NCBI GenBank assembly: GCA_022822085.1
Contig: JAJECK010000075.1
Span: 1-46,711, forward strand
Reading direction: 5' to 3'
Origin: Candidatus Poribacteria bacterium
GTDB lineage: Bacteria > Poribacteria > WGA-4E > WGA-3G
DNA length: 46,711 bases
Below, one piece after another: positions 2,598 to 34,239 of the stretch (position 1 is the stretch's first letter; each line of letters begins with the position of its first letter). Below the pieces are notes generated by a model. The model did not search any database, was not told the origin of the DNA, and saw only the letters and a list, made by a program, of their open reading frames with translations. A program made the translations under genes and the position numbers.

Positions 2598-3692
2598 ATG
2601 AAGTCAATTATTGATAAATTGACGATATATCTATTGCTATTTATGTTTTCAATAAACGCTTTTGCTCAAGTCCGATTGGGAGGGAATCCAGAAGGATTAA
2701 ACCTTTTCGCGTTAAGTCCAGATGGTGAAACACTGGCAGGTAGTAATTTCCCTGGCACTATACATTTGTGGGATACTGCTACCGGCGCAGAGAAAGATGT
2801 CTTCAAAAGCGAGTTCACCATAGGTGCCGGTGCCGTTCTTACTTTTAGTCCTGACAGCACACTACTTGCCAGTGGTTCTGAACGGAGTAGGGTGACTTTG
2901 TGGGATGTCGCTACCGGAGAAGCAAAATTCGTATTCGAACATGTTGGGGCAAACTCGATTTCAAGCATATCTTTCAGTCCAGATGGAACCACGTTGGCAA
3001 GTTGTGCTGCCGGCAGATGGGGAACGTCTTCTACGTTTATATATTTTTGGGATGTTGAGACGGGAAAGAAGAAATCTGAAATCGAAGTACCTGAGCTCCC
3101 CATGTGTAGTACATTTAGTCCAGATGGAACTACTTTGGCGATTGGGACTACAGGATTTAGAAATAAACCCGTTTCCGTCTATTTATGGGATATCCACGAA
3201 AACGTCGAAATAGCTACACTCGAAATAGCTACACTTAAGGATCCTTGGGGTGTCGACTATGTCAAGTTCAGTCCAGATGGAACTGCTTTGGCAGCTGGTA
3301 TTGGAGACAGCTCCCTAATCATGTTGTGGGATGTTGTTACAAGAAAAGAAACAGGTCATCTACACGGGTATGCTGATGAGTGGACTAACGTATCTTTTGC
3401 GTTTACCCCGGACGGGACGATACTGGCAGGTCCCGGTGGTGATCCTGATGCCGGTGTGCTTGGACTTTATTTATGGGATATTTTCAACGAGAAAAGGAAA
3501 GAAATCTCTGAACCACGTAAGTTTGCTGGGGTTAGTCCAAACAGCACATTCCATGCTGTTGAAGTGCAAGAAGAGGTAATAGATGGAAATAATACTAATA
3601 CATACTTGCTATGGACTATATCGCCTGAAGAAGTTTTTATGGACGTTGCCGCCCACGGCAAATTGGCGACAAGATGGGCGGATCTGAAATAG
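2598..3692 (+). CDS. Secreted WD40 beta-propeller protein with short W-x-x-LK tail
   Basis: I start at the ATG at 2598 rather than 2565, because AAGGAG at 2585-2590 lies 7 nt before it and the protein then opens with a clean signal peptide (MKSIIDKLTIYLLLFMFS...AFAQ). The 364 residues are WD40 blades throughout, with repeated SPDGTTLA and LWD signatures, so it is probably a single beta-propeller used for extracytoplasmic binding. Unlike its two large WD40 neighbours it has no dockerin and no YPNPFNP module. It ends GKLATRWADLK, a tail shared with other secreted proteins in this window (30338, 31076, 32092 and the remnant at 8459). The ligand is unknown. Confidence 0.85.
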   Translation: MKSIIDKLTIYLLLFMFSINAFAQVRLGGNPEGLNLFALSPDGETLAGSNFPGTIHLWDTATGAEKDVFKSEFTIGAGAVLTFSPDSTLLASGSERSRVTLWDVATGEAKFVFEHVGANSISSISFSPDGTTLASCAAGRWGTSSTFIYFWDVETGKKKSEIEVPELPMCSTFSPDGTTLAIGTTGFRNKPVSVYLWDIHENVEIATLEIATLKDPWGVDYVKFSPDGTALAAGIGDSSLIMLWDVVTRKETGHLHGYADEWTNVSFAFTPDGTILAGPGGDPDAGVLGLYLWDIFNEKRKEISEPRKFAGVSPNSTFHAVEVQEEVIDGNNTNTYLLWTISPEEVFMDVAAHGKLATRWADLK

Positions 3693-7389: not shown

Positions 7390-7425
7390 ATTTTCACAGT
7401 GAGTAGATTTTTTATAGTTACCATT

Positions 7426-26444: not shown

Positions 26445-26595
26445 TCTGGTTGCGGCTAAACAAATTGTTAGAGTTTCATAAGATTATAGAAAGGAGTATG
26501 TGTTTTCTTAGTAAATACTGTTATTAGTAGAATATCAATGCATTTTATTCTTTATCTATTTTATGTATTTTCCGAGAATTCACAGGAATTTTGGA

Positions 26596-27408
26596 ATGGT
26601 TGAAGTATGTTTTTTTGCTGATGAAGTTTCCAGAGATGATTTTGAGGAGGCTATCAAACTCGGTGTTGACGCGGGAGCAACAACTGTTGAAGTGCGGGGT
26701 GGTGTGTGGGGAAAACACGTCACCGAAATTGACGACGATGATGTTAAACGTGTACAAGATGTCCTGAGTAAATACGATGTTCGCGTTGCAAGTATCGGTT
26801 CACCTTTTGGAAAATGTCCAATAGATAATCAACAGGAGTATGAAAGACATCTGAAACATTTTGACCGAATGGTCGATCTTGCACATGCATTTGGGACACC
26901 AATCATAAGAGGTTTTGCGTTTTGGAACCCAAATCGTAGACTGAAAGAGTCATCACGACCAGATATAAACGACTATCTGGATCAGATTGCTGAAAAACTC
27001 TTACCTGTTGTTCCGATTGCAGAAAGTGCTAATGTAATTCTTGCATTTGAAAATGAAGATGCTACACTGGCTGGTTCCTGTGAGGAAACTCGCGCAGTCA
27101 TAGATGCACTCGGCAATAGTTCCGCACTGGCTTCATGCTGGGATGTCAATAATGGAATACACTGTGGCGAACATCCATTACCTGATGGATACTCACATAT
27201 CAAAGGACTTGTGCGGCATGTGCATGTTAAACCGAATCGTGAGAAAAATCTTGATCCTATCAGAGATACCGACTTACGTTATGAGCAGGTGTTAGCAACA
27301 CTTATCAGTGATGGCTATGAAGGAGCAGCAAGTATTGAACACTGGGGTAACCCGCAACAGATGTTAGATGGTATTCGTCAACTACGCGCAGTTATTGACA
27401 CAATGTAA
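26596..27408 (+). CDS. Sugar phosphate isomerase/epimerase (xylose-isomerase-like TIM barrel)
   Basis: I prefer the ATG at 26596 (AGGAA 8 nt upstream) over 26563, giving 270 residues, the usual length. TIM-barrel signatures include GVDAGATTVEVRGG near the start, FGTPIIRGFAFWNP, ILAFENEDATLAGS with the metal glutamate, ASCWDVNNGIHCGE, VRHVHVKPNRE and AASIEHWGNP with the last acidic residue. Members isomerise or epimerise sugars or cyclitols, such as IolE- or tagatose-epimerase-like enzymes. The substrate cannot be told. It heads a run of carbohydrate-type genes on the same strand. Confidence 0.85.
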   Translation: MVEVCFFADEVSRDDFEEAIKLGVDAGATTVEVRGGVWGKHVTEIDDDDVKRVQDVLSKYDVRVASIGSPFGKCPIDNQQEYERHLKHFDRMVDLAHAFGTPIIRGFAFWNPNRRLKESSRPDINDYLDQIAEKLLPVVPIAESANVILAFENEDATLAGSCEETRAVIDALGNSSALASCWDVNNGIHCGEHPLPDGYSHIKGLVRHVHVKPNREKNLDPIRDTDLRYEQVLATLISDGYEGAASIEHWGNPQQMLDGIRQLRAVIDTM

Positions 27409-27440
27409 TTTCGTCTAAAATTGTAAGGAGAAGTTTTATT

Positions 27441-28430
27441 ATGCACTTGAAACCTGATTCACCGAATTTGAATTGGCAAGGTGTTGTATCTGTTGAAAAG
27501 ACAGGCGAGGCACTCATGCCGTGGCGAACACCCCACGAAATGCATGTGCTGTTTCCTGAACCGTTACTTGAACGTTCCGCAATGCCAGCAGGAGTGAGGA
27601 TTAGTTTCCGTAGTAACACAATCCATATTTCTGGTAGTATTTTAGAGCAGCGCGACTCCGGCATGCTTGATCTATGTTGTAATGGAGAATTCACTGCTTC
27701 GTATGATCTGCGGGGAAAGAACAGTTTCGTTTTCAGCAATCTTCCAGATAAAGATAAACTAATAGAATTATGGTTGCCGCAATTTGGCAGGTTTCAATTT
27801 CGTAATATAGAAATAGATGATGGTGCTACAGTAGAGCCATATATTGACAAACGTCCAAAATGGATTACTTATGGCAGTTCAATTACACAGTGTCGTTCTG
27901 CTGCCTCACCAACACAGACATGGCCTGGCATTGTGGCACGCAGTAAAAACTTCAACTTAACTTGTTTGGGATACGGAGGTCAGTGTCACCTCGATTCAAT
28001 GGTAGCGCGTATGATCCGTGATCTCCCTGCTAATTATATCTCAATGTGTCTCGGCATTAACATTCAGGGGGCATCAAGTTTAGGACCGCGTGCATTTCGT
28101 CCAGCAATTATAGGTGCAGTGCAGATCATTCGTGAAAAACATACAGATATACCTATCGTTCTAATGTCACCTATCTATTGTCCAAACAGAGAAGAAAACC
28201 CGAACAATGTAGGCTTTAATCTGCAAAAAATGCGTGAAGAGGTACAGGCTGCTGCGAATGCACTTCAATCTTATGGTGATAAAAACGTGCATTATGTTAG
28301 CGGTTTGGATGTGTTTGGGGCGGATTATGTTGACCTACTACCAGATAACTTACATCCAGATGCAGAAGGTTATAGAGTGATGGGAAACAATTTTGTAGAT
28401 GTTGTCGCAAACAAATATTTCGTTGAATAA
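27441..28430 (+). CDS. SGNH/GDSL hydrolase (carbohydrate-esterase-like)
   Basis: 329 residues. An N-terminal beta-rich domain (about 1-130) is followed by an SGNH hydrolase domain with block I YGSSIT (catalytic S147), block II GYGGQCHLD, block III LGINIQ and block V DNLHPD with D302 and H305. The two-domain form resembles carbohydrate esterases that remove acyl groups from glycans. No signal peptide is visible, so the substrate may be a small imported sugar ester (inference). A clear Shine-Dalgarno (AAGGAG) precedes it, 32 nt after the isomerase gene. Confidence 0.85.
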   Translation: MHLKPDSPNLNWQGVVSVEKTGEALMPWRTPHEMHVLFPEPLLERSAMPAGVRISFRSNTIHISGSILEQRDSGMLDLCCNGEFTASYDLRGKNSFVFSNLPDKDKLIELWLPQFGRFQFRNIEIDDGATVEPYIDKRPKWITYGSSITQCRSAASPTQTWPGIVARSKNFNLTCLGYGGQCHLDSMVARMIRDLPANYISMCLGINIQGASSLGPRAFRPAIIGAVQIIREKHTDIPIVLMSPIYCPNREENPNNVGFNLQKMREEVQAAANALQSYGDKNVHYVSGLDVFGADYVDLLPDNLHPDAEGYRVMGNNFVDVVANKYFVE

Positions 28431-28468
28431 AATGAGCAAATAACTTTTTCAATTTATGGAGAATGTCA

Positions 28469-29548
28469 ATGAAAACGTACCGCGCAGCAGTAATCGGTTG
28501 TAGTCGGATGGGGGCATTCATTGATAACGAAGTTCCTGACTACAAAGCGATCAAGCTGCCATATTCTCATGCTGCAGGGTTCTTTGCAGAAGAACGAACC
28601 GATCTCATTGCATGTGCAGATTTACGGACTGAGGTGATGGAACAGTTTGGAAACCGTTATAATGTTTCAAAAGCGAATCAATATATAGACTATTGTGAAA
28701 TGATTGAAAAAGAAGAACCGGATATTGTAAGTGTCGCAACACAACCTGAACATCGTGCAGAAATTGTCATATACGCGGCGGAACACGGTGTGAAAGCAAT
28801 TTATGCTGAAAAAGCGATGGCAGCTTCTATGGATGAAGCAGCTGCTATGGTCTCTGCCGTTGAACAGAACAACGTTGCTTTCAACCTTGGGACAAATCGC
28901 AGATGGCATACCGGTTTTGACAAGATGAAGGAAATCATAGACAGTGGTGAAATTGGGAAACTGCGGTCTCTTATTATCTATAACAACGGCAATCTATTCA
29001 ATACTGCAAGTCATCACTTAGACTTGATCTTACGATTAAATAACGATGAACCTGCTGTCTGGGTCTCTGGATACCTGCCTCAAGGTGACTCAGTAATTGA
29101 TGGTGAAATACTACAGGCTGATCCTATTGGTGGTGGAACAATCCAGTTTGAAAATGGAGTCACAGCACATGCATTGTTGACCCCGCGCAGTAGTGAATGG
29201 GAAGCAATTTGTGATGGCGGCACCATCACCTGCTGGAACAACGGTTGGCAGTGGCATATCCGTAAACAACAAGAGGTATCTGGATGGCGATCCTGTAAAG
29301 TTCCTCATACATTTCCTTCGTCCGAACAAACAAGTAGCACAGCAAACCTAATTAAAGATCTGGTTCACGCGTTAGACACAGGTGAACCGACACGTGGTGG
29401 AGTCCGATGCGCTTATGCAAGCACTGAACTGATTTTCGGTATAATCGAATCACATCTACACAATGGAGCACGAATTGGACTCCCATTAAAAGACTCAAAA
29501 ATTCGTTTACAAAGAAATCCTACAGGAAGACAACCACGATACGAGTAA
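28469..29548 (+). CDS. Gfo/Idh/MocA-family oxidoreductase with EKA motif
   Basis: Starting at 28469 (GGAGA 7 nt upstream; the ATG at 28463 lies too close to it) gives 359 residues. The NAD(P)-binding start is AVIGCSRMGAFID. The motif that normally reads EKP is here YAEKA (E114, K115, A116), with the catalytic lysine kept but the proline lost. Further down come LGTNRRWHTGFDKM and ASHHLDLILRL with candidate catalytic histidine and aspartate. It is probably a sugar or cyclitol dehydrogenase. The tail is basic (QRNPTGRQPRYE). Confidence 0.85.
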   Translation: MKTYRAAVIGCSRMGAFIDNEVPDYKAIKLPYSHAAGFFAEERTDLIACADLRTEVMEQFGNRYNVSKANQYIDYCEMIEKEEPDIVSVATQPEHRAEIVIYAAEHGVKAIYAEKAMAASMDEAAAMVSAVEQNNVAFNLGTNRRWHTGFDKMKEIIDSGEIGKLRSLIIYNNGNLFNTASHHLDLILRLNNDEPAVWVSGYLPQGDSVIDGEILQADPIGGGTIQFENGVTAHALLTPRSSEWEAICDGGTITCWNNGWQWHIRKQQEVSGWRSCKVPHTFPSSEQTSSTANLIKDLVHALDTGEPTRGGVRCAYASTELIFGIIESHLHNGARIGLPLKDSKIRLQRNPTGRQPRYE

Positions 29549-29627
29549 ATAACATTTCGGTGTAAGTGTCCTCTTGCAATTTATCAAGCATTGAAAATAT
29601 ATCAAATACAAATACGGAGAAAAACAA

Positions 29628-30338
29628 ATGAAATTTACACTTTACTGCTTACTTGTAATATTAATCACAATTACACCAATGGTGTCCGCAGTACACAATG
29701 AAGAGAAAGGACCGGAGAAATTCGGTCGATATGTATTCAAAGAACAAGATATTGATGCGGCAACGAAGGCTTGTGATGCAGGGGAGAAACCGGGACCAGA
29801 ATTTGTCCCAACTGTTCGGGATAAAGAACCGAATTTAGCATTACTGAAAGATGCTAAAGCGGAAGCATCTTCTTTATTAGGTGGGTGGTGCCCACAACGG
29901 CACTGCACCGAATATCTTAACGACGGTTTCTACAACAATTGCAGAAGTTGGATTATCGGTGCAGTGCCGGGTTGGGCACAGATTGATATTGGCGAAGTAG
30001 CGAATGTGAATCGCATAATTTTTGGTAGTGACCATTCACAAGGTTTCACTGACCGGATGGCTGCAGACTTTGATATCCTCGTCGCAACAAAAATCGCGGA
30101 TGCAAACTCTGAAGCTAACACTTGGGAAAATGTCTATACGCATAAAGGAGCACCAATAAGCAAAACCACAGAGATAACCTTTGACGACGTAGAAGCCCGG
30201 TGGTTACGTATACACATCCGCAAAAATGCAGATGCACGTATTGATGAAATAGAGATATATGGTGGTAATGATCCCTTCGCTGTTGAACCGACTGATAAAC
30301 TAACAACAGTCTGGGGACAAATTAAAATTAATAATTAA
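29628..30338 (+). CDS. Secreted F5/8 type C (discoidin-like) domain protein with W-x-x-LK-type tail
   Basis: 236 residues with a signal peptide (MKFTLYCLLVILITITPMVSA). Residues about 65-215 form a galactose-binding-like F5/8C domain: PNLALLKDAKAEASSLLGG, LNDGFYNN, WAQIDIGEVANVNRIIFG, and RWLRIHIRKNADARIDEIEI at its end. The last residues are VEPTDKLTTVWGQIKINN, matching the tails of the two genes that follow and the WD40 protein at 2598. It probably binds carbohydrate outside the cell. Spacing to the next gene is 27 nt. Confidence 0.8.
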   Translation: MKFTLYCLLVILITITPMVSAVHNEEKGPEKFGRYVFKEQDIDAATKACDAGEKPGPEFVPTVRDKEPNLALLKDAKAEASSLLGGWCPQRHCTEYLNDGFYNNCRSWIIGAVPGWAQIDIGEVANVNRIIFGSDHSQGFTDRMAADFDILVATKIADANSEANTWENVYTHKGAPISKTTEITFDDVEARWLRIHIRKNADARIDEIEIYGGNDPFAVEPTDKLTTVWGQIKINN

Positions 30339-30365
30339 TAAATAATAACAAAAAGGAGAAAAATA

Positions 30366-31076
30366 ATGCGTTATGCATTTTGTTTGTTGCTGATTCTATG
30401 TGCAAGCACTGTTTCAGCTGAAATTCTGTTTCAAGATGACTTCGAGGGTGGTAAAGTTGACGATAAAAAATGGACACCCCACGGTACTTGGGCGATTGAG
30501 GATAGTAATGACGATCATGATGTGCTTGGCAAAAAAGTACTCGCTGTACAAGGAAGTGAAATTGGACTTAGTGTTGAATCATTTCCTGATGAATTTGATT
30601 ATTATGCAGATTTTAAAACTGTTTCAGCGGGTTTGACAGGATTCGTATTCCATGCACAAGACGCGAGTAATGTCTACATGCATCAAGTTTCAACCGCGGG
30701 GTCAGCACATACGCCGCAACATATCCGTTGGCACAGAAAGGTTGGCGGTGGATATGCTGTAGATGCATTAGCCTTTGCAGACAAAGTGAATCGGGACCAA
30801 AATGTCTGGTATCGTGTCAAGTTTGAGGTGCGTAAGAACTATAAATTTAAGGCTTACCTGGGAGATGTTGGTGCAGAAGACGATGATCTCACACTGGTCA
30901 GTGAATGGACAGATGCACTGAAATCATTTGAGAAGGGTAAAATTGGAATCCGAATGAGCGGAGGTGAACGTGCACAATATGATAACATTGTCGTTGCGTC
31001 TCCAGATTTTGACATTTTCCCAGTTGAACCTAAAGCAAAACTTGCAGTGACTTGGGGTAGTTTGAAGAAAAAATAA
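30366..31076 (+). CDS. Secreted jelly-roll (LamG-like) protein, paralogue 1
   Basis: 236 residues with a signal peptide (MRYAFCLLLILCASTVSA); AAAGGAG ahead of the ATG. The body is one concanavalin-like jelly roll: FQDDFEGGKVDDKKWTPHGTW, YYADFKTVSAGLTGFVFH, VWYRVKFEVRKNYKFKAYLG and KGKIGIRMSGGERAQYDNI. The fold occurs in glycan-binding domains and the 3-keto-disaccharide hydrolase family, but I see no catalytic set. It ends VEPKAKLAVTWGSLKKK. It is the tandem paralogue of the gene at 31382. Confidence 0.8.
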   Translation: MRYAFCLLLILCASTVSAEILFQDDFEGGKVDDKKWTPHGTWAIEDSNDDHDVLGKKVLAVQGSEIGLSVESFPDEFDYYADFKTVSAGLTGFVFHAQDASNVYMHQVSTAGSAHTPQHIRWHRKVGGGYAVDALAFADKVNRDQNVWYRVKFEVRKNYKFKAYLGDVGAEDDDLTLVSEWTDALKSFEKGKIGIRMSGGERAQYDNIVVASPDFDIFPVEPKAKLAVTWGSLKKK

Positions 31077-31132
31077 TTTCACCCGATAAATGTCAAATTT
31101 ATTCTTGTCATTCGTAACCATTAAACAGGTTG

Positions 31133-31220
31133 GCTCATGTAAAGAATGAGTGCAAATAAAAATTTAACCCTTGTGGTCATTGATTTCATGGAAACGATAG
31201 CACACACCTTTTACATGAGC
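31133..31220. other. Inverted repeat in the gap between the jelly-roll paralogues
   Basis: GCTCATGTAAAG (31133-31144) and CTTTTACATGAGC (31208-31220) are complementary and about 63 nt apart, with no ORF between them. This could be a short mobile repeat or an RNA stem. It follows the stop of the first paralogue by 57 nt. Confidence 0.45.
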
Positions 31221-31266
31221 GAACATGTTTATACCATAAATGTAACCTGCAAATACAGAAATATGG

Positions 31267-31356
31267 TATAATTGAAATATAGTTGATTGCAATTACTTTA
31301 AAGTTTAAATTTATATCAAATGAAAATCAGGATGAACATCCTGTCATCTGATTTTC
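31267..31356 (+). promoter_or_regulatory. Promoter box and competing hairpins before jelly-roll paralogue 2
   Basis: TATAAT lies at 31267-31272; no convincing -35 box is seen. Downstream, GAAAATCAG (31322-31330) can pair with CTGATTTTC (about 31348-31356). Its last three bases also take part in a perfect CAGGATG/CATCCTG hairpin (31328-31343). The two folds exclude each other, as in attenuators. The second stem is followed by TTTAT. Confidence 0.4.
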
Positions 31357-31381
31357 TTTATCTCACAAGGAGATGATTAAT

Positions 31382-32092
31382 ATGCGATATTTTGTTTGTT
31401 TAACTCTGATACTATGTGCTGCTACAGTAGCTGCTGATATACTGTTTCATGATGATTTTGAAGGTGATAACATAGACGACACAAAATGGGTCCCGCAAGG
31501 CACCTGGGAACTTGTTGAGAATGCTGATGGTCATGATGTGTTAGGGAACAAGGTTCTTTTTGTTCCAGGCGGTGAAGTCGGGCTTAGCGTTGATGAATTC
31601 CCAGAAGAATACGATTACTACGCTGATTTTAAAGCAATGCAAAATGGGTTAACAGGTTTTGTTTTCCACGGAACTGATGGTAACAATATTTACATGCATC
31701 AAGTTTCAACGGATGCATCAGGGCACACACCACAACACATCCGTTGGCATAGAAGAGTGGACGGTGGTTGGGCTGCTGAGCCTGGAGCTTTTGCAGACGG
31801 TGTTGATCGTAAAGCTAATGTATGGTACCGTGCGAAATTTGAAGTTCGTTCAGGGTCCAATTTTAAAGCTTACATTGGACCTGTTGGGGCACCTTCTGAA
31901 GATCTATCTTTCGTGAGTGAATGGACAGATTCACAGAAAGCTTTCTCAAAAGGAAAAATTGGGTTCCGTATGAGTGGTGCCGAACACGCTCAATACGATA
32001 ACTTGTACGTTGTAACACCCGGGGTCACACCTACACCTGTTGAACCTAAAGGTAAAATTGCAGTTACTTGGGGTAACTTAAAACGCAAGTAA
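31382..32092 (+). CDS. Secreted jelly-roll (LamG-like) protein, paralogue 2
   Basis: The ATG at 31373 touches its own AAGGAG, so the ATG at 31382 (9 nt from it) is the real start. This gives 236 residues, exactly the length of paralogue 1. The sequence aligns along its whole length with paralogue 1: signal peptide RYFVCLTLILCAATVAA, FHDDFEGDNIDDTKWVPQGTW, TPQHIRWHRRVDGGW, KGKIGFRMSGAEHAQYDNL, and the tail VEPKGKIAVTWGNLKRK. A recent tandem duplication is the simple explanation, and both copies keep intact signals. Role as in paralogue 1: extracytoplasmic binding, ligand unknown. Confidence 0.8.
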   Translation: MRYFVCLTLILCAATVAADILFHDDFEGDNIDDTKWVPQGTWELVENADGHDVLGNKVLFVPGGEVGLSVDEFPEEYDYYADFKAMQNGLTGFVFHGTDGNNIYMHQVSTDASGHTPQHIRWHRRVDGGWAAEPGAFADGVDRKANVWYRAKFEVRSGSNFKAYIGPVGAPSEDLSFVSEWTDSQKAFSKGKIGFRMSGAEHAQYDNLYVVTPGVTPTPVEPKGKIAVTWGNLKRK

Positions 32093-32126: not shown

Positions 32127-33125
32127 GTGAATCCCTTATCAATTGGCATAATCGGTGCTGGTAGGATGGGTAGGCATCACTGTGATGCAGTAACCAAGTA
32201 CGGTGCTCATGTAGTTGCAGTTCACGATGTTCTGTCTGAAGCAGCGAAAGCGTTGGCATCCCACGCTAAATCAGAACTTTCTACCGATGTGTTACAAACT
32301 TTTTTTGACAAAGAAATGGACGGGGTGGTGATTACAACACCACCCCCTGTTCGTTTAGAACCTATACAGATGGCATGTGAACGTGGCATCCCAATGCTGG
32401 TTGAAAAACCGCCTGCTCTGAACATATCTGATGGACGAAGGTGTCTTGAATATATTCATCAGTCAGGGGTTATTGCAGCCGTTGGATTTCAACTCCGATA
32501 CCATCCCCTATATGAACGGATGAAGGAATTGATTGCCTCTGAGACCATCCATCTTGTCAGAACCGTTTGCACCATAAGTTATTATCTCAATTTCCAAATG
32601 CCTACTTGGTTTTTACAATCTGAAATTAGTGGAGGTCCTTTAGCGGAACAGGCAGTGCATGTATTAGATTGCGCTCGTTATGTGATGGGAAACCCAAAGC
32701 CAATTCAAGCTCATGCATTGGCAGTCAAGAATATGGCATTGGATAGAACGGAATTTGATGCTGAAAACGCCATCCAAATGACTTATGAATTAGACAACGG
32801 TGTCTACGGGACGCACATGAATCATTGTGGTACCGAAGGTTTCTGCTTTGATGTTGAAGTTATTGGACCGCATTTGCATCTACAAGGTAAAATGTCCGAT
32901 AGTGCAATACGCGGTTACCTAAACGGAGAAACAATAGATGAACCTGCTACATCAAATAACAGCATCGGTTTAGACAAAACAGGGGCATGGCTTCGGGCAA
33001 TTGAAACAGGTGACAGAACTTTGATCCGTTCTGATTTTGCAGATGCCATTGAAACACTCACACTAATAGACGCGGCAATAAAAAGTAGGAATACTGGAAC
33101 ATTTATAAAAGTGGAGGAATTATAA
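32127..33125 (+). CDS. Gfo/Idh/MocA-family oxidoreductase
   Basis: 332 residues with a GTG start; an in-frame TGA at 32115 rules out a longer form. NAD(P)-binding start IGIIGAGRMGRHHCD, the EKP motif at E93-K94-P95 (LVEKPPALN), and the active-site helix GGPLAEQAVHVLDCARYV with the catalytic histidine. Likely an NAD-dependent sugar or inositol dehydrogenase. Its stop (TAA) shares one base with the ATG of the selenoprotein gene, and the next gene's ribosome site GGAGG lies inside its last codons, so the two are coupled. Confidence 0.9.
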   Translation: MNPLSIGIIGAGRMGRHHCDAVTKYGAHVVAVHDVLSEAAKALASHAKSELSTDVLQTFFDKEMDGVVITTPPPVRLEPIQMACERGIPMLVEKPPALNISDGRRCLEYIHQSGVIAAVGFQLRYHPLYERMKELIASETIHLVRTVCTISYYLNFQMPTWFLQSEISGGPLAEQAVHVLDCARYVMGNPKPIQAHALAVKNMALDRTEFDAENAIQMTYELDNGVYGTHMNHCGTEGFCFDVEVIGPHLHLQGKMSDSAIRGYLNGETIDEPATSNNSIGLDKTGAWLRAIETGDRTLIRSDFADAIETLTLIDAAIKSRNTGTFIKVEEL

Positions 33126-33469
33126 TGATAGACTGGATTTATTTTAGGAATAGCTGAAACTCTTGCAAAAAAGTTCAAGAGGTACTTGACACACATAACA
33201 TTGAAGCAAAAGAACGAACAGATGCTCGCAAAGAGAAGTTAGAAGCAGATGCAGTATGGGATTTAATGGAATCTGCTGAAAGTATAGTAGTTGCTAAAGG
33301 AAAAAGTGTGGAAACTTATATCCCTAACGAAGATTCACGTGAAGACGTACTTAAAGTGGTACTCGGACGGAGTGGCAGTTTGCGCGCTCCGACTGTGAAA
33401 ACAGGTGATGTCTTTTATGTCGGTTATAACGAGACGCTCTACGCTGATTTTCCTGCAGGAAATGGATAG
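33125..33469 (+). CDS. ArsC-family selenoprotein (in-frame TGA read as selenocysteine)
   Basis: The ATG at 33125 has a perfect Shine-Dalgarno (GGAGG at 33113-33117, 7 nt away) and gives MIDWIYFRNS, then TGA at 33155-33157, then NSCKKVQEVLDTHNIEAKER, without any other stop for 114 codons. Read with selenocysteine at residue 11 it makes U-N-S-C (U11, C14), the redox position of ArsC/Spx-like thioredoxin-fold proteins. The rest fits the arsenate-reductase-related family: KGKSVETYIP, LLG-like VVLGRSGSLRAPTVKTGDVF and YVGYNETLYADF. Sec-containing members of this family are known in other bacteria (from memory). Without readthrough only residues 48-114 would be found. Its ATG overlaps the TAA of the Gfo/Idh gene and it precedes an epimerase by 8 nt. 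The substrate is unknown; arsenate reduction is not implied. Confidence 0.85.
33155..33181 (+). promoter_or_regulatory. Candidate bacterial SECIS element
   Basis: Directly after the TGA (33155-33157), CTCTTG (33160-33165) pairs perfectly with CAAGAG (33176-33181). This leaves a 10-nt loop CAAAAAAGTT with a G-T step (G33173, 16 nt past the TGA). Position, short stem and loop G fit the bacterial SECIS plan recognised by SelB. The stem is short, so this is support rather than proof. Confidence 0.55.
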
Positions 33470-33477
33470 AAACTCTG

Positions 33478-34239
33478 ATGGCTATAGAGAAGATATTGAT
33501 AACAGGTGCTGCAGGATACCTCGCGCAGTTTATAATTGAACGTTTGCACACTACATATACACTGACCTTGACAGATATTGTTGAACCGGATCGTAAATAT
33601 GATGGAACTACATTCATAAAAGCAGATGTAACTGAGTTGTCAGAGATTGAAGCTGCTTGTGCAGAGCACGATGCTGTTGTGCATCTGGTTGCTCTGGTTC
33701 GTGAACGTCATGGTAAACCGCTTTCATTATATGCTGAGGTGATGGTCAAAGGCACGTGGAATGTGGCGGAAGCCTGTGTGCGACAAGGTGTGAAAAAACT
33801 TGTCAATATCTCAAGCATCTCAGCATGTCCACCTGCTCCTGAAACCCAATTGCCATATCAAGTTGGGAATAAGTTCCAGTTTGGCGGTGGAGACCTATAT
33901 TATTCGTTGTCAAAATATCTTGGAGAACAGATAGGATTAGCCTACCATCAGGCACACGGTTTGAAAGTGATTCATGTCCGACCAGGAGTTATTGATGGAG
34001 ATGGACTTAATCCAGGACCTTCAGCACCTGATGTCGTAACAGAACCTTGGTTTGTTTATGTTGATCCAAGAGATGTGGCACAGTGTATTGAATGTGTTAT
34101 TAAAAACAGTGATGTCAATTACGGTGCATATAATGCAGTTGCTGGACGCAAAGACTCCCGTTATGACTGGAAGCAAGCCGAAAAAGATATAGGATATTCA
34201 CCTGAATACAATTGGAAAGAGATTCCTGATATGGAGTGA
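33478..34239 (+). CDS. NAD-dependent epimerase/dehydratase (extended SDR)
   Basis: 253 residues. The cofactor motif is ILITGAAGYLA near residue 10 and the catalytic pair Y142-x3-K146 lies in YYSLSKYLGE. VNISSISACPP carries the partner serine, and IHVRPGVIDGDGL is the substrate-side loop. The family covers sugar-nucleotide epimerases, dehydratases and dehydrogenases; this short form is closer to the uronate- or sugar-dehydrogenase-like SDRs. It lies 8 nt after the selenoprotein and ends the plus-strand cluster. A bidirectional stem-loop follows. Confidence 0.85.
   Translation: MAIEKILITGAAGYLAQFIIERLHTTYTLTLTDIVEPDRKYDGTTFIKADVTELSEIEAACAEHDAVVHLVALVRERHGKPLSLYAEVMVKGTWNVAEACVRQGVKKLVNISSISACPPAPETQLPYQVGNKFQFGGGDLYYSLSKYLGEQIGLAYHQAHGLKVIHVRPGVIDGDGLNPGPSAPDVVTEPWFVYVDPRDVAQCIECVIKNSDVNYGAYNAVAGRKDSRYDWKQAEKDIGYSPEYNWKEIPDME

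What the first reader, a model, noticed from the sequence alone, without database searches (positions are those of the whole stretch)
33125..33469. ArsC-family selenoprotein with in-frame TGA (U-x-x-C)
The sequence shows a perfect Shine-Dalgarno, an ATG, 10 sense codons, TGA, then 103 sense codons in the same frame, with a redox motif U11-N-S-C14 where ArsC/Spx-like proteins carry their active cysteine. Ordinary gene finding would start at 33266 and lose the active site. The gene is stop-start coupled to a Gfo/Idh oxidoreductase and followed after 8 nt by an SDR, so a Sec redox protein is built into a carbohydrate-type operon. I know of no such coupling.
Basis: partly seen in the sequence, partly recalled or inferred. 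Interest (0 to 1): 0.92.

Follow-up and report, generated by a model that had tools for sequence, protein, structure and literature searches.

The report
ArsC-like selenoprotein of Poribacteria
This is a real gene in which the stop codon TGA is most likely read as the rare amino acid selenocysteine, giving a small redox protein; it belongs to a selenoprotein family already described, so the finding is correct but not very surprising.

Summary
At 33125-33469 an open frame of 10 sense codons, TGA, 103 sense codons and TAG follows a strong Shine-Dalgarno. The product matches NCBIfam NF041106.1 'ArsC family (seleno)protein' (126.6 bits, cut-off 85). The TGA is kept in all 59 matches in the order and in all 80 database loci, which span Poribacteria, Desulfobacterota-type lineages, Anaerolineales and Calditrichaeota. 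Residues on both sides of it are conserved. A small hairpin just downstream is frozen at synonymous sites and shows compensatory changes, as a bacterial SECIS should. The own genome has tRNA-Sec, selB, selA and a selD that itself carries a TGA. Sequencing error, pseudogene and late start are rejected. Sec insertion is not shown biochemically.

The family is known: UxxC 'arsenate reductase 2' (cd03032) selenoproteins were listed in 2008 and again in 2022. The operon claim is partly right. The order Gfo/Idh-ArsC-SDR is kept in 42 of 55 poribacterial loci but absent elsewhere, and the selenoprotein persists where the Gfo/Idh gene is lost. Arsenate reductase and Spx hallmarks are missing, so a glutaredoxin-like selenol-thiol oxidoreductase is the best reading.

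The parts
33112..33117 (+). Shine-Dalgarno region (core GGAGG)
   Evidence: the same GTGGAGGA is kept in most same-genus relatives
33125..33469 (+). ArsC-family selenoprotein gene, 114 residues, stop TAG 33467-33469
33155..33157 (+). in-frame TGA, codon 11, read as selenocysteine (inferred); motif U11-N-S-C14
   Evidence: TGA kept in 59/59 and 80/80 relatives; aligns with Spx Cys10
33173..33192 (+). SECIS-like hairpin GTTCAAG-AGGTA-CTTGACAC, apical loop 33180-33184
   Evidence: synonymous-site conservation, pair counts, pairing table
32127..33125 (+). upstream Gfo/Idh/MocA oxidoreductase, stop overlaps the ATG
   Evidence: synteny
33478..34239 (+). downstream NAD-dependent epimerase/dehydratase (SDR), itself ending with TGA as a true stop
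   Evidence: synteny

Best explanation
A genuine selenoprotein of an uncultured Candidatus Poribacteria bacterium. SelB carrying Sec-tRNA-Sec binds the hairpin that begins 18 nt after the first base of the UGA and decodes the UGA as selenocysteine (inferred from the sel genes and the hairpin). The product is a small Trx-fold protein of the ArsC/Spx/YffB branch with a U11-x-x-C14 motif at the start of the first helix. The most likely chemistry is glutaredoxin-like: the Sec selenolate attacks a disulfide or another oxidised sulfur or selenium substrate, and Cys14 resolves the selenenyl-sulfide (inferred). It lacks hallmarks of true arsenate reductases and of the RNA-polymerase-binding Spx regulators.
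For: NF041106.1 126.6 bits vs cut-off 85. TGA in every relative. Invariant W4 and R8 before it and G81-R82-S83-G84, R87-A88-P89, N102 after it across 27 diverse members. Codons 1-14 after the TGA are more frozen at synonymous sites than the rest (mean z -6.7 vs -2.4). Compensatory changes in the hairpin (covariation score reached by 0/500 shuffles). tRNA-Sec 78 bits, selB 354 bits, selA 611 bits, selD 367 bits with its own TGA. tRNA-Sec found in 54 of the 59 relatives with the gene. AlphaFold model pLDDT 92, best PDB matches Spx, YffB, ArsC-related proteins. U11 aligns with Spx Cys10.
Against: No biochemical proof of Sec insertion. Free-energy folding of the window's own hairpin alone is not significant (z -0.8, and a rival fold in the longer stretch). 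The substrate is unknown, so the glutaredoxin-like chemistry is less sure than the Sec reading. TM-scores to PDB relatives are only about 0.5.
Confidence: 0.93

Rival explanations
1. A redox protein working specifically with the Gfo/Idh and SDR enzymes in sugar oxidation, that is, a dedicated three-gene module.
For: Gfo-ArsC-SDR order in 42 of 55 poribacterial loci across several genera while other neighbours vary; start-stop overlap in the window.
Against: Absent in 13 poribacterial loci and in all loci of other phyla. No close Gfo/Idh match in genomes G006, G007, G014 and G016, with only a remnant left at the locus in G007 and G014, although the ArsC gene with its TGA is kept. Spacing to the neighbours varies, up to 233 nt upstream and more than 700 nt downstream.
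Confidence: 0.12
2. A true arsenate reductase in which Sec replaces the catalytic Cys.
For: COG1393/ArsC-family resemblance; the literature calls relatives 'arsenate reductase 2'.
Against: Pfam ArsC is below its cut-off (17.9 vs 24). The residue just before the cis-Pro, an Arg in arsenate reductases (R94 of R773 ArsC, general knowledge) and in Spx, is an invariant Ala here. The second Cys of UxxC is not part of that mechanism (general knowledge).
Confidence: 0.07
3. A Spx-like redox-switch regulator that binds RNA polymerase, with the CxxC switch changed to UxxC.
For: Spx is the closest solved protein by sequence and fold; U11/C14 align with Cys10/Cys13.
Against: The four residues that include Gly52 of Spx, which contacts the alpha C-terminal domain (general knowledge), fall in a gap of this family. 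NCBIfam Spx models score 15.9-28.2 bits, far under their cut-offs of 123-159.
Confidence: 0.05
4. Not a selenoprotein: the TGA is a sequencing error, a pseudogene mark, reassigned to another residue, or the true start is ATG 33266.
For: None beyond the TGA being a stop in the standard code.
Against: TGA at this place in two overlapping sets of 59 and 80 loci from independent genomes; conserved residues before it; the neighbouring SDR uses TGA as stop; Met48 at 33266 is not conserved among relatives.
Confidence: 0.01

Closest known systems
NCBIfam NF041106.1 'ArsC family (seleno)protein' (ArsC_rel_Se_1)
   Same: Full-length match over the cut-off, Sec site in place
   Different: Nothing essential; this is a poribacterial member
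'Arsenate reductase 2' (cd03032, UxxC) selenoprotein of the Global Ocean Sampling data (PMC2398784; table of PMC9312934)
   Same: ArsC/Spx-branch Trx fold, UxxC motif, marine
   Different: Sequence identity to those entries was not measured here, as they are not held
ArsC-like selenoproteins of Desulfotalea psychrophila and Desulfuromonas acetoxidans (PMC1794560)
   Same: ArsC-like with Sec; Desulfobulbaceae relatives of this protein were found here
   Different: Other phylum; no Gfo/SDR neighbours in the related loci examined
Spx (PDB 1z3e, 3gfk) and YffB (1rw1)
   Same: Fold; CxxC of Spx aligns with UxxC here
   Different: Cys instead of Sec; the Spx Gly52 loop is missing here, and Ala precedes the cis-Pro

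Membership tests
Bacterial selenoprotein | in-frame UGA conserved across relatives with coding conservation on both sides | tested here: met
Bacterial selenoprotein | SECIS hairpin just downstream with a small apical loop holding G | tested here: met
   energy of the single window sequence not significant
Bacterial selenoprotein | selA, selB, selC, selD in the same genome | tested here: met
Bacterial selenoprotein | selenium or Sec shown in the protein | not testable with these tools
   needs 75Se labelling or mass spectrometry
NF041106.1 ArsC family (seleno)protein | score over curated cut-off | tested here: met
   126.6 vs 85 bits
ArsC arsenate reductase (PF03960) | score over gathering cut-off | tested here: not met
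   17.9 vs 24 bits
ArsC arsenate reductase | Arg directly before the cis-Pro | tested here: not met
   invariant Ala88-Pro89; role of the Arg from general knowledge
Spx regulator | score over curated cut-off | tested here: not met
   15.9-28.2 bits vs cut-offs 123-159
Spx regulator | Gly52 loop contacting RNA polymerase alpha | tested here: not met
   four-residue gap over it; role of Gly52 from general knowledge

The most novel reading that the evidence does not exclude
The selenoprotein is a dedicated redox partner of the Gfo/Idh and SDR enzymes in a poribacterial sugar-oxidation pathway, so that selenium use would be tied to carbohydrate breakdown in these bacteria.
Probability: 0.1. Interest if true: 0.5.

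Novelty: new member of a known kind. Interest (0 to 1): 0.25.

Why it matters
It confirms selenocysteine coding across Candidatus Poribacteria, common sponge symbionts, and points to a well-conserved redox family whose substrate is unknown and for which no Cys form was seen among the 80 best relatives. It also shows how ordinary gene calling would lose such a gene's active site. The conserved gene order gives a testable, though weakly supported, lead to a partner pathway.

Tried and rejected
Rfam gathering search of the window found nothing; that is no test of a short, variable bacterial SECIS. Single-sequence RNA folding was inconclusive, so pair counting on alignments was used instead. Considered and rejected: sequencing error, pseudogene, code reassignment, late start at 33266. 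No Cys form was seen among the 80 best of 92 relatives; 12 weaker ones were not shown, so Cys forms are not excluded. Only two papers held both 'Poribacteria' and 'selenocysteine', with one mention of selenocysteine each.

Full report
Observation. The frame is as described: ATG 33125, TGA 33155-33157 as codon 11, TAG 33467-33469, 114 residues, with a GGAGG Shine-Dalgarno. The Gfo/Idh stop overlaps the start (TAATG) and the SDR begins 8 nt after the stop. The genetic code is ordinary: the neighbouring SDR gene ends with TGA.

Identity. The protein read through the TGA hits NCBIfam NF041106.1 'ArsC family (seleno)protein' at 126.6 bits against a cut-off of 85. Pfam ArsC and the Spx models are below their cut-offs. 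The organism is a member of Candidatus Poribacteria, judged from the named relatives, which are up to 80% identical.

Conservation. Of 79 genomes searched (the window's own and its relatives), 60 had a match; 59 of these, all within the order, carry exactly one in-frame TGA, and 58 of them pass the cut-off; the 60th is a weak match without a stop in a distant genome. Of 80 loci fetched by protein patterns from a collection of bacterial and archaeal species genomes, all have TGA at the Sec position: 78 by script, and L113 and L129 read by eye. They include Poribacteria, Desulfobulbaceae- and Desulfobacteraceae-type bacteria, Anaerolineales and a Calditrichaeota MAG. One of the two search patterns could only match Cys forms, and none appeared among the 80. 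The two sets overlap. Residues before the TGA (W4, R8) are as invariant as those after it, which speaks against a start downstream of it.

SECIS. The stretch after the TGA is nearly frozen at synonymous sites: K16, Q18, E19, L21 and D22 each use a single codon in 30 genomes wherever that residue is present; mean z is -6.7 for codons 1-14 and -2.4 beyond (the test ignores relatedness, so only the contrast is meaningful). The stretch GTGCAAG-AGGTT-CTTGACAC forms a hairpin with a five-base loop. The four core pairs hold in 95-100% of 38 distinct sequences, including G-C to A-U exchanges at the loop-closing pair, and lower pairs exchange GTG/CAC for GCG/CGC. The covariation score exceeded all 500 shuffles and slid controls scored lower; the shuffles do not correct for relatedness. 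Folding energy of the window alone was not significant.

Machinery. The own genome (96.5% complete) has tRNA-Sec directly after selB on contig C94, selA on C104 and selD on C140. The selD reads KCAG-TGA-ASKLAPGE, so it looks like a selenoprotein gene itself. tRNA-Sec was found in 54 of the 59 genomes that carry this gene; the five misses are draft assemblies.

Structure and mechanism. AlphaFold gave pLDDT 91.8. The best solved matches by sequence and fold are Spx, YffB and ArsC-related proteins, with TM about 0.5. U11 and C14 fall on the Spx CxxC. The residue before the cis-Pro is an invariant Ala instead of Arg, and the loop that includes Spx Gly52 is missing. I therefore favour a glutaredoxin-like selenol-thiol oxidoreductase; the substrate is not known. 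Shown: the gene, its conservation, the hairpin, the sel genes. Inferred: Sec insertion and the chemistry.

Neighbourhood. The order Gfo/Idh-ArsC-SDR is found in 42 of 55 poribacterial loci, often alongside an F5/8 type C gene. It is absent from the other 13 and from all loci of other phyla. The Gfo/Idh gene has no match at the threshold used in genomes G006, G007, G014 and G016, and only a remnant is left beside the ArsC gene in G007 and G014. In relatives G054 and G055 a Gfo/Idh of 63-64% identity lies elsewhere in the genome. So the link is a lineage-specific gene order, not a general coupling.

Literature. ArsC-like selenoproteins were listed in 2005 (UxxS, PMC1088965), in 2006 (PMC1794560), as a UxxC 'arsenate reductase 2' matching cd03032 in 2008 (PMC2398784), and in the 2022 table (PMC9312934). 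The finding is a good reading of raw sequence, but of a known kind.

Noticed in passing
L051 (own genome contig C94), TGA at about 7399-7401, minus strand: A probable second selenoprotein close to selB: an AhpC/TSA domain (PF00578, 105.7 bits) reading ...VFFRGGW-TGA-PWC..., a UxxC peroxiredoxin-like motif.
   Followed up: partly
L050 (own genome contig C140), selD: selD carries an in-frame TGA at its active site (KCAG-U-ASK), so the selenium donor enzyme is itself a likely selenoprotein.
   Followed up: partly
window ORFs ending at 3692, 8459, 30338, 31076, 32092; also L051 9392-9934: These ORFs, several starting with signal-like sequences, end in a shared tail K-L/I-T/A-x-x-W-G/A-x-L/I-K, possibly a poribacterial sorting or secretion tail. 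An NCBIfam scan of four of them showed no known tail.
   Followed up: partly
window 26563-32092: A carbohydrate-type cluster: xylose-isomerase-like TIM barrel, GDSL hydrolase, Gfo/Idh, F5/8 type C and a 3-keto-disaccharide hydrolase-like domain, perhaps a 3-keto-glycoside pathway.
   Followed up: no
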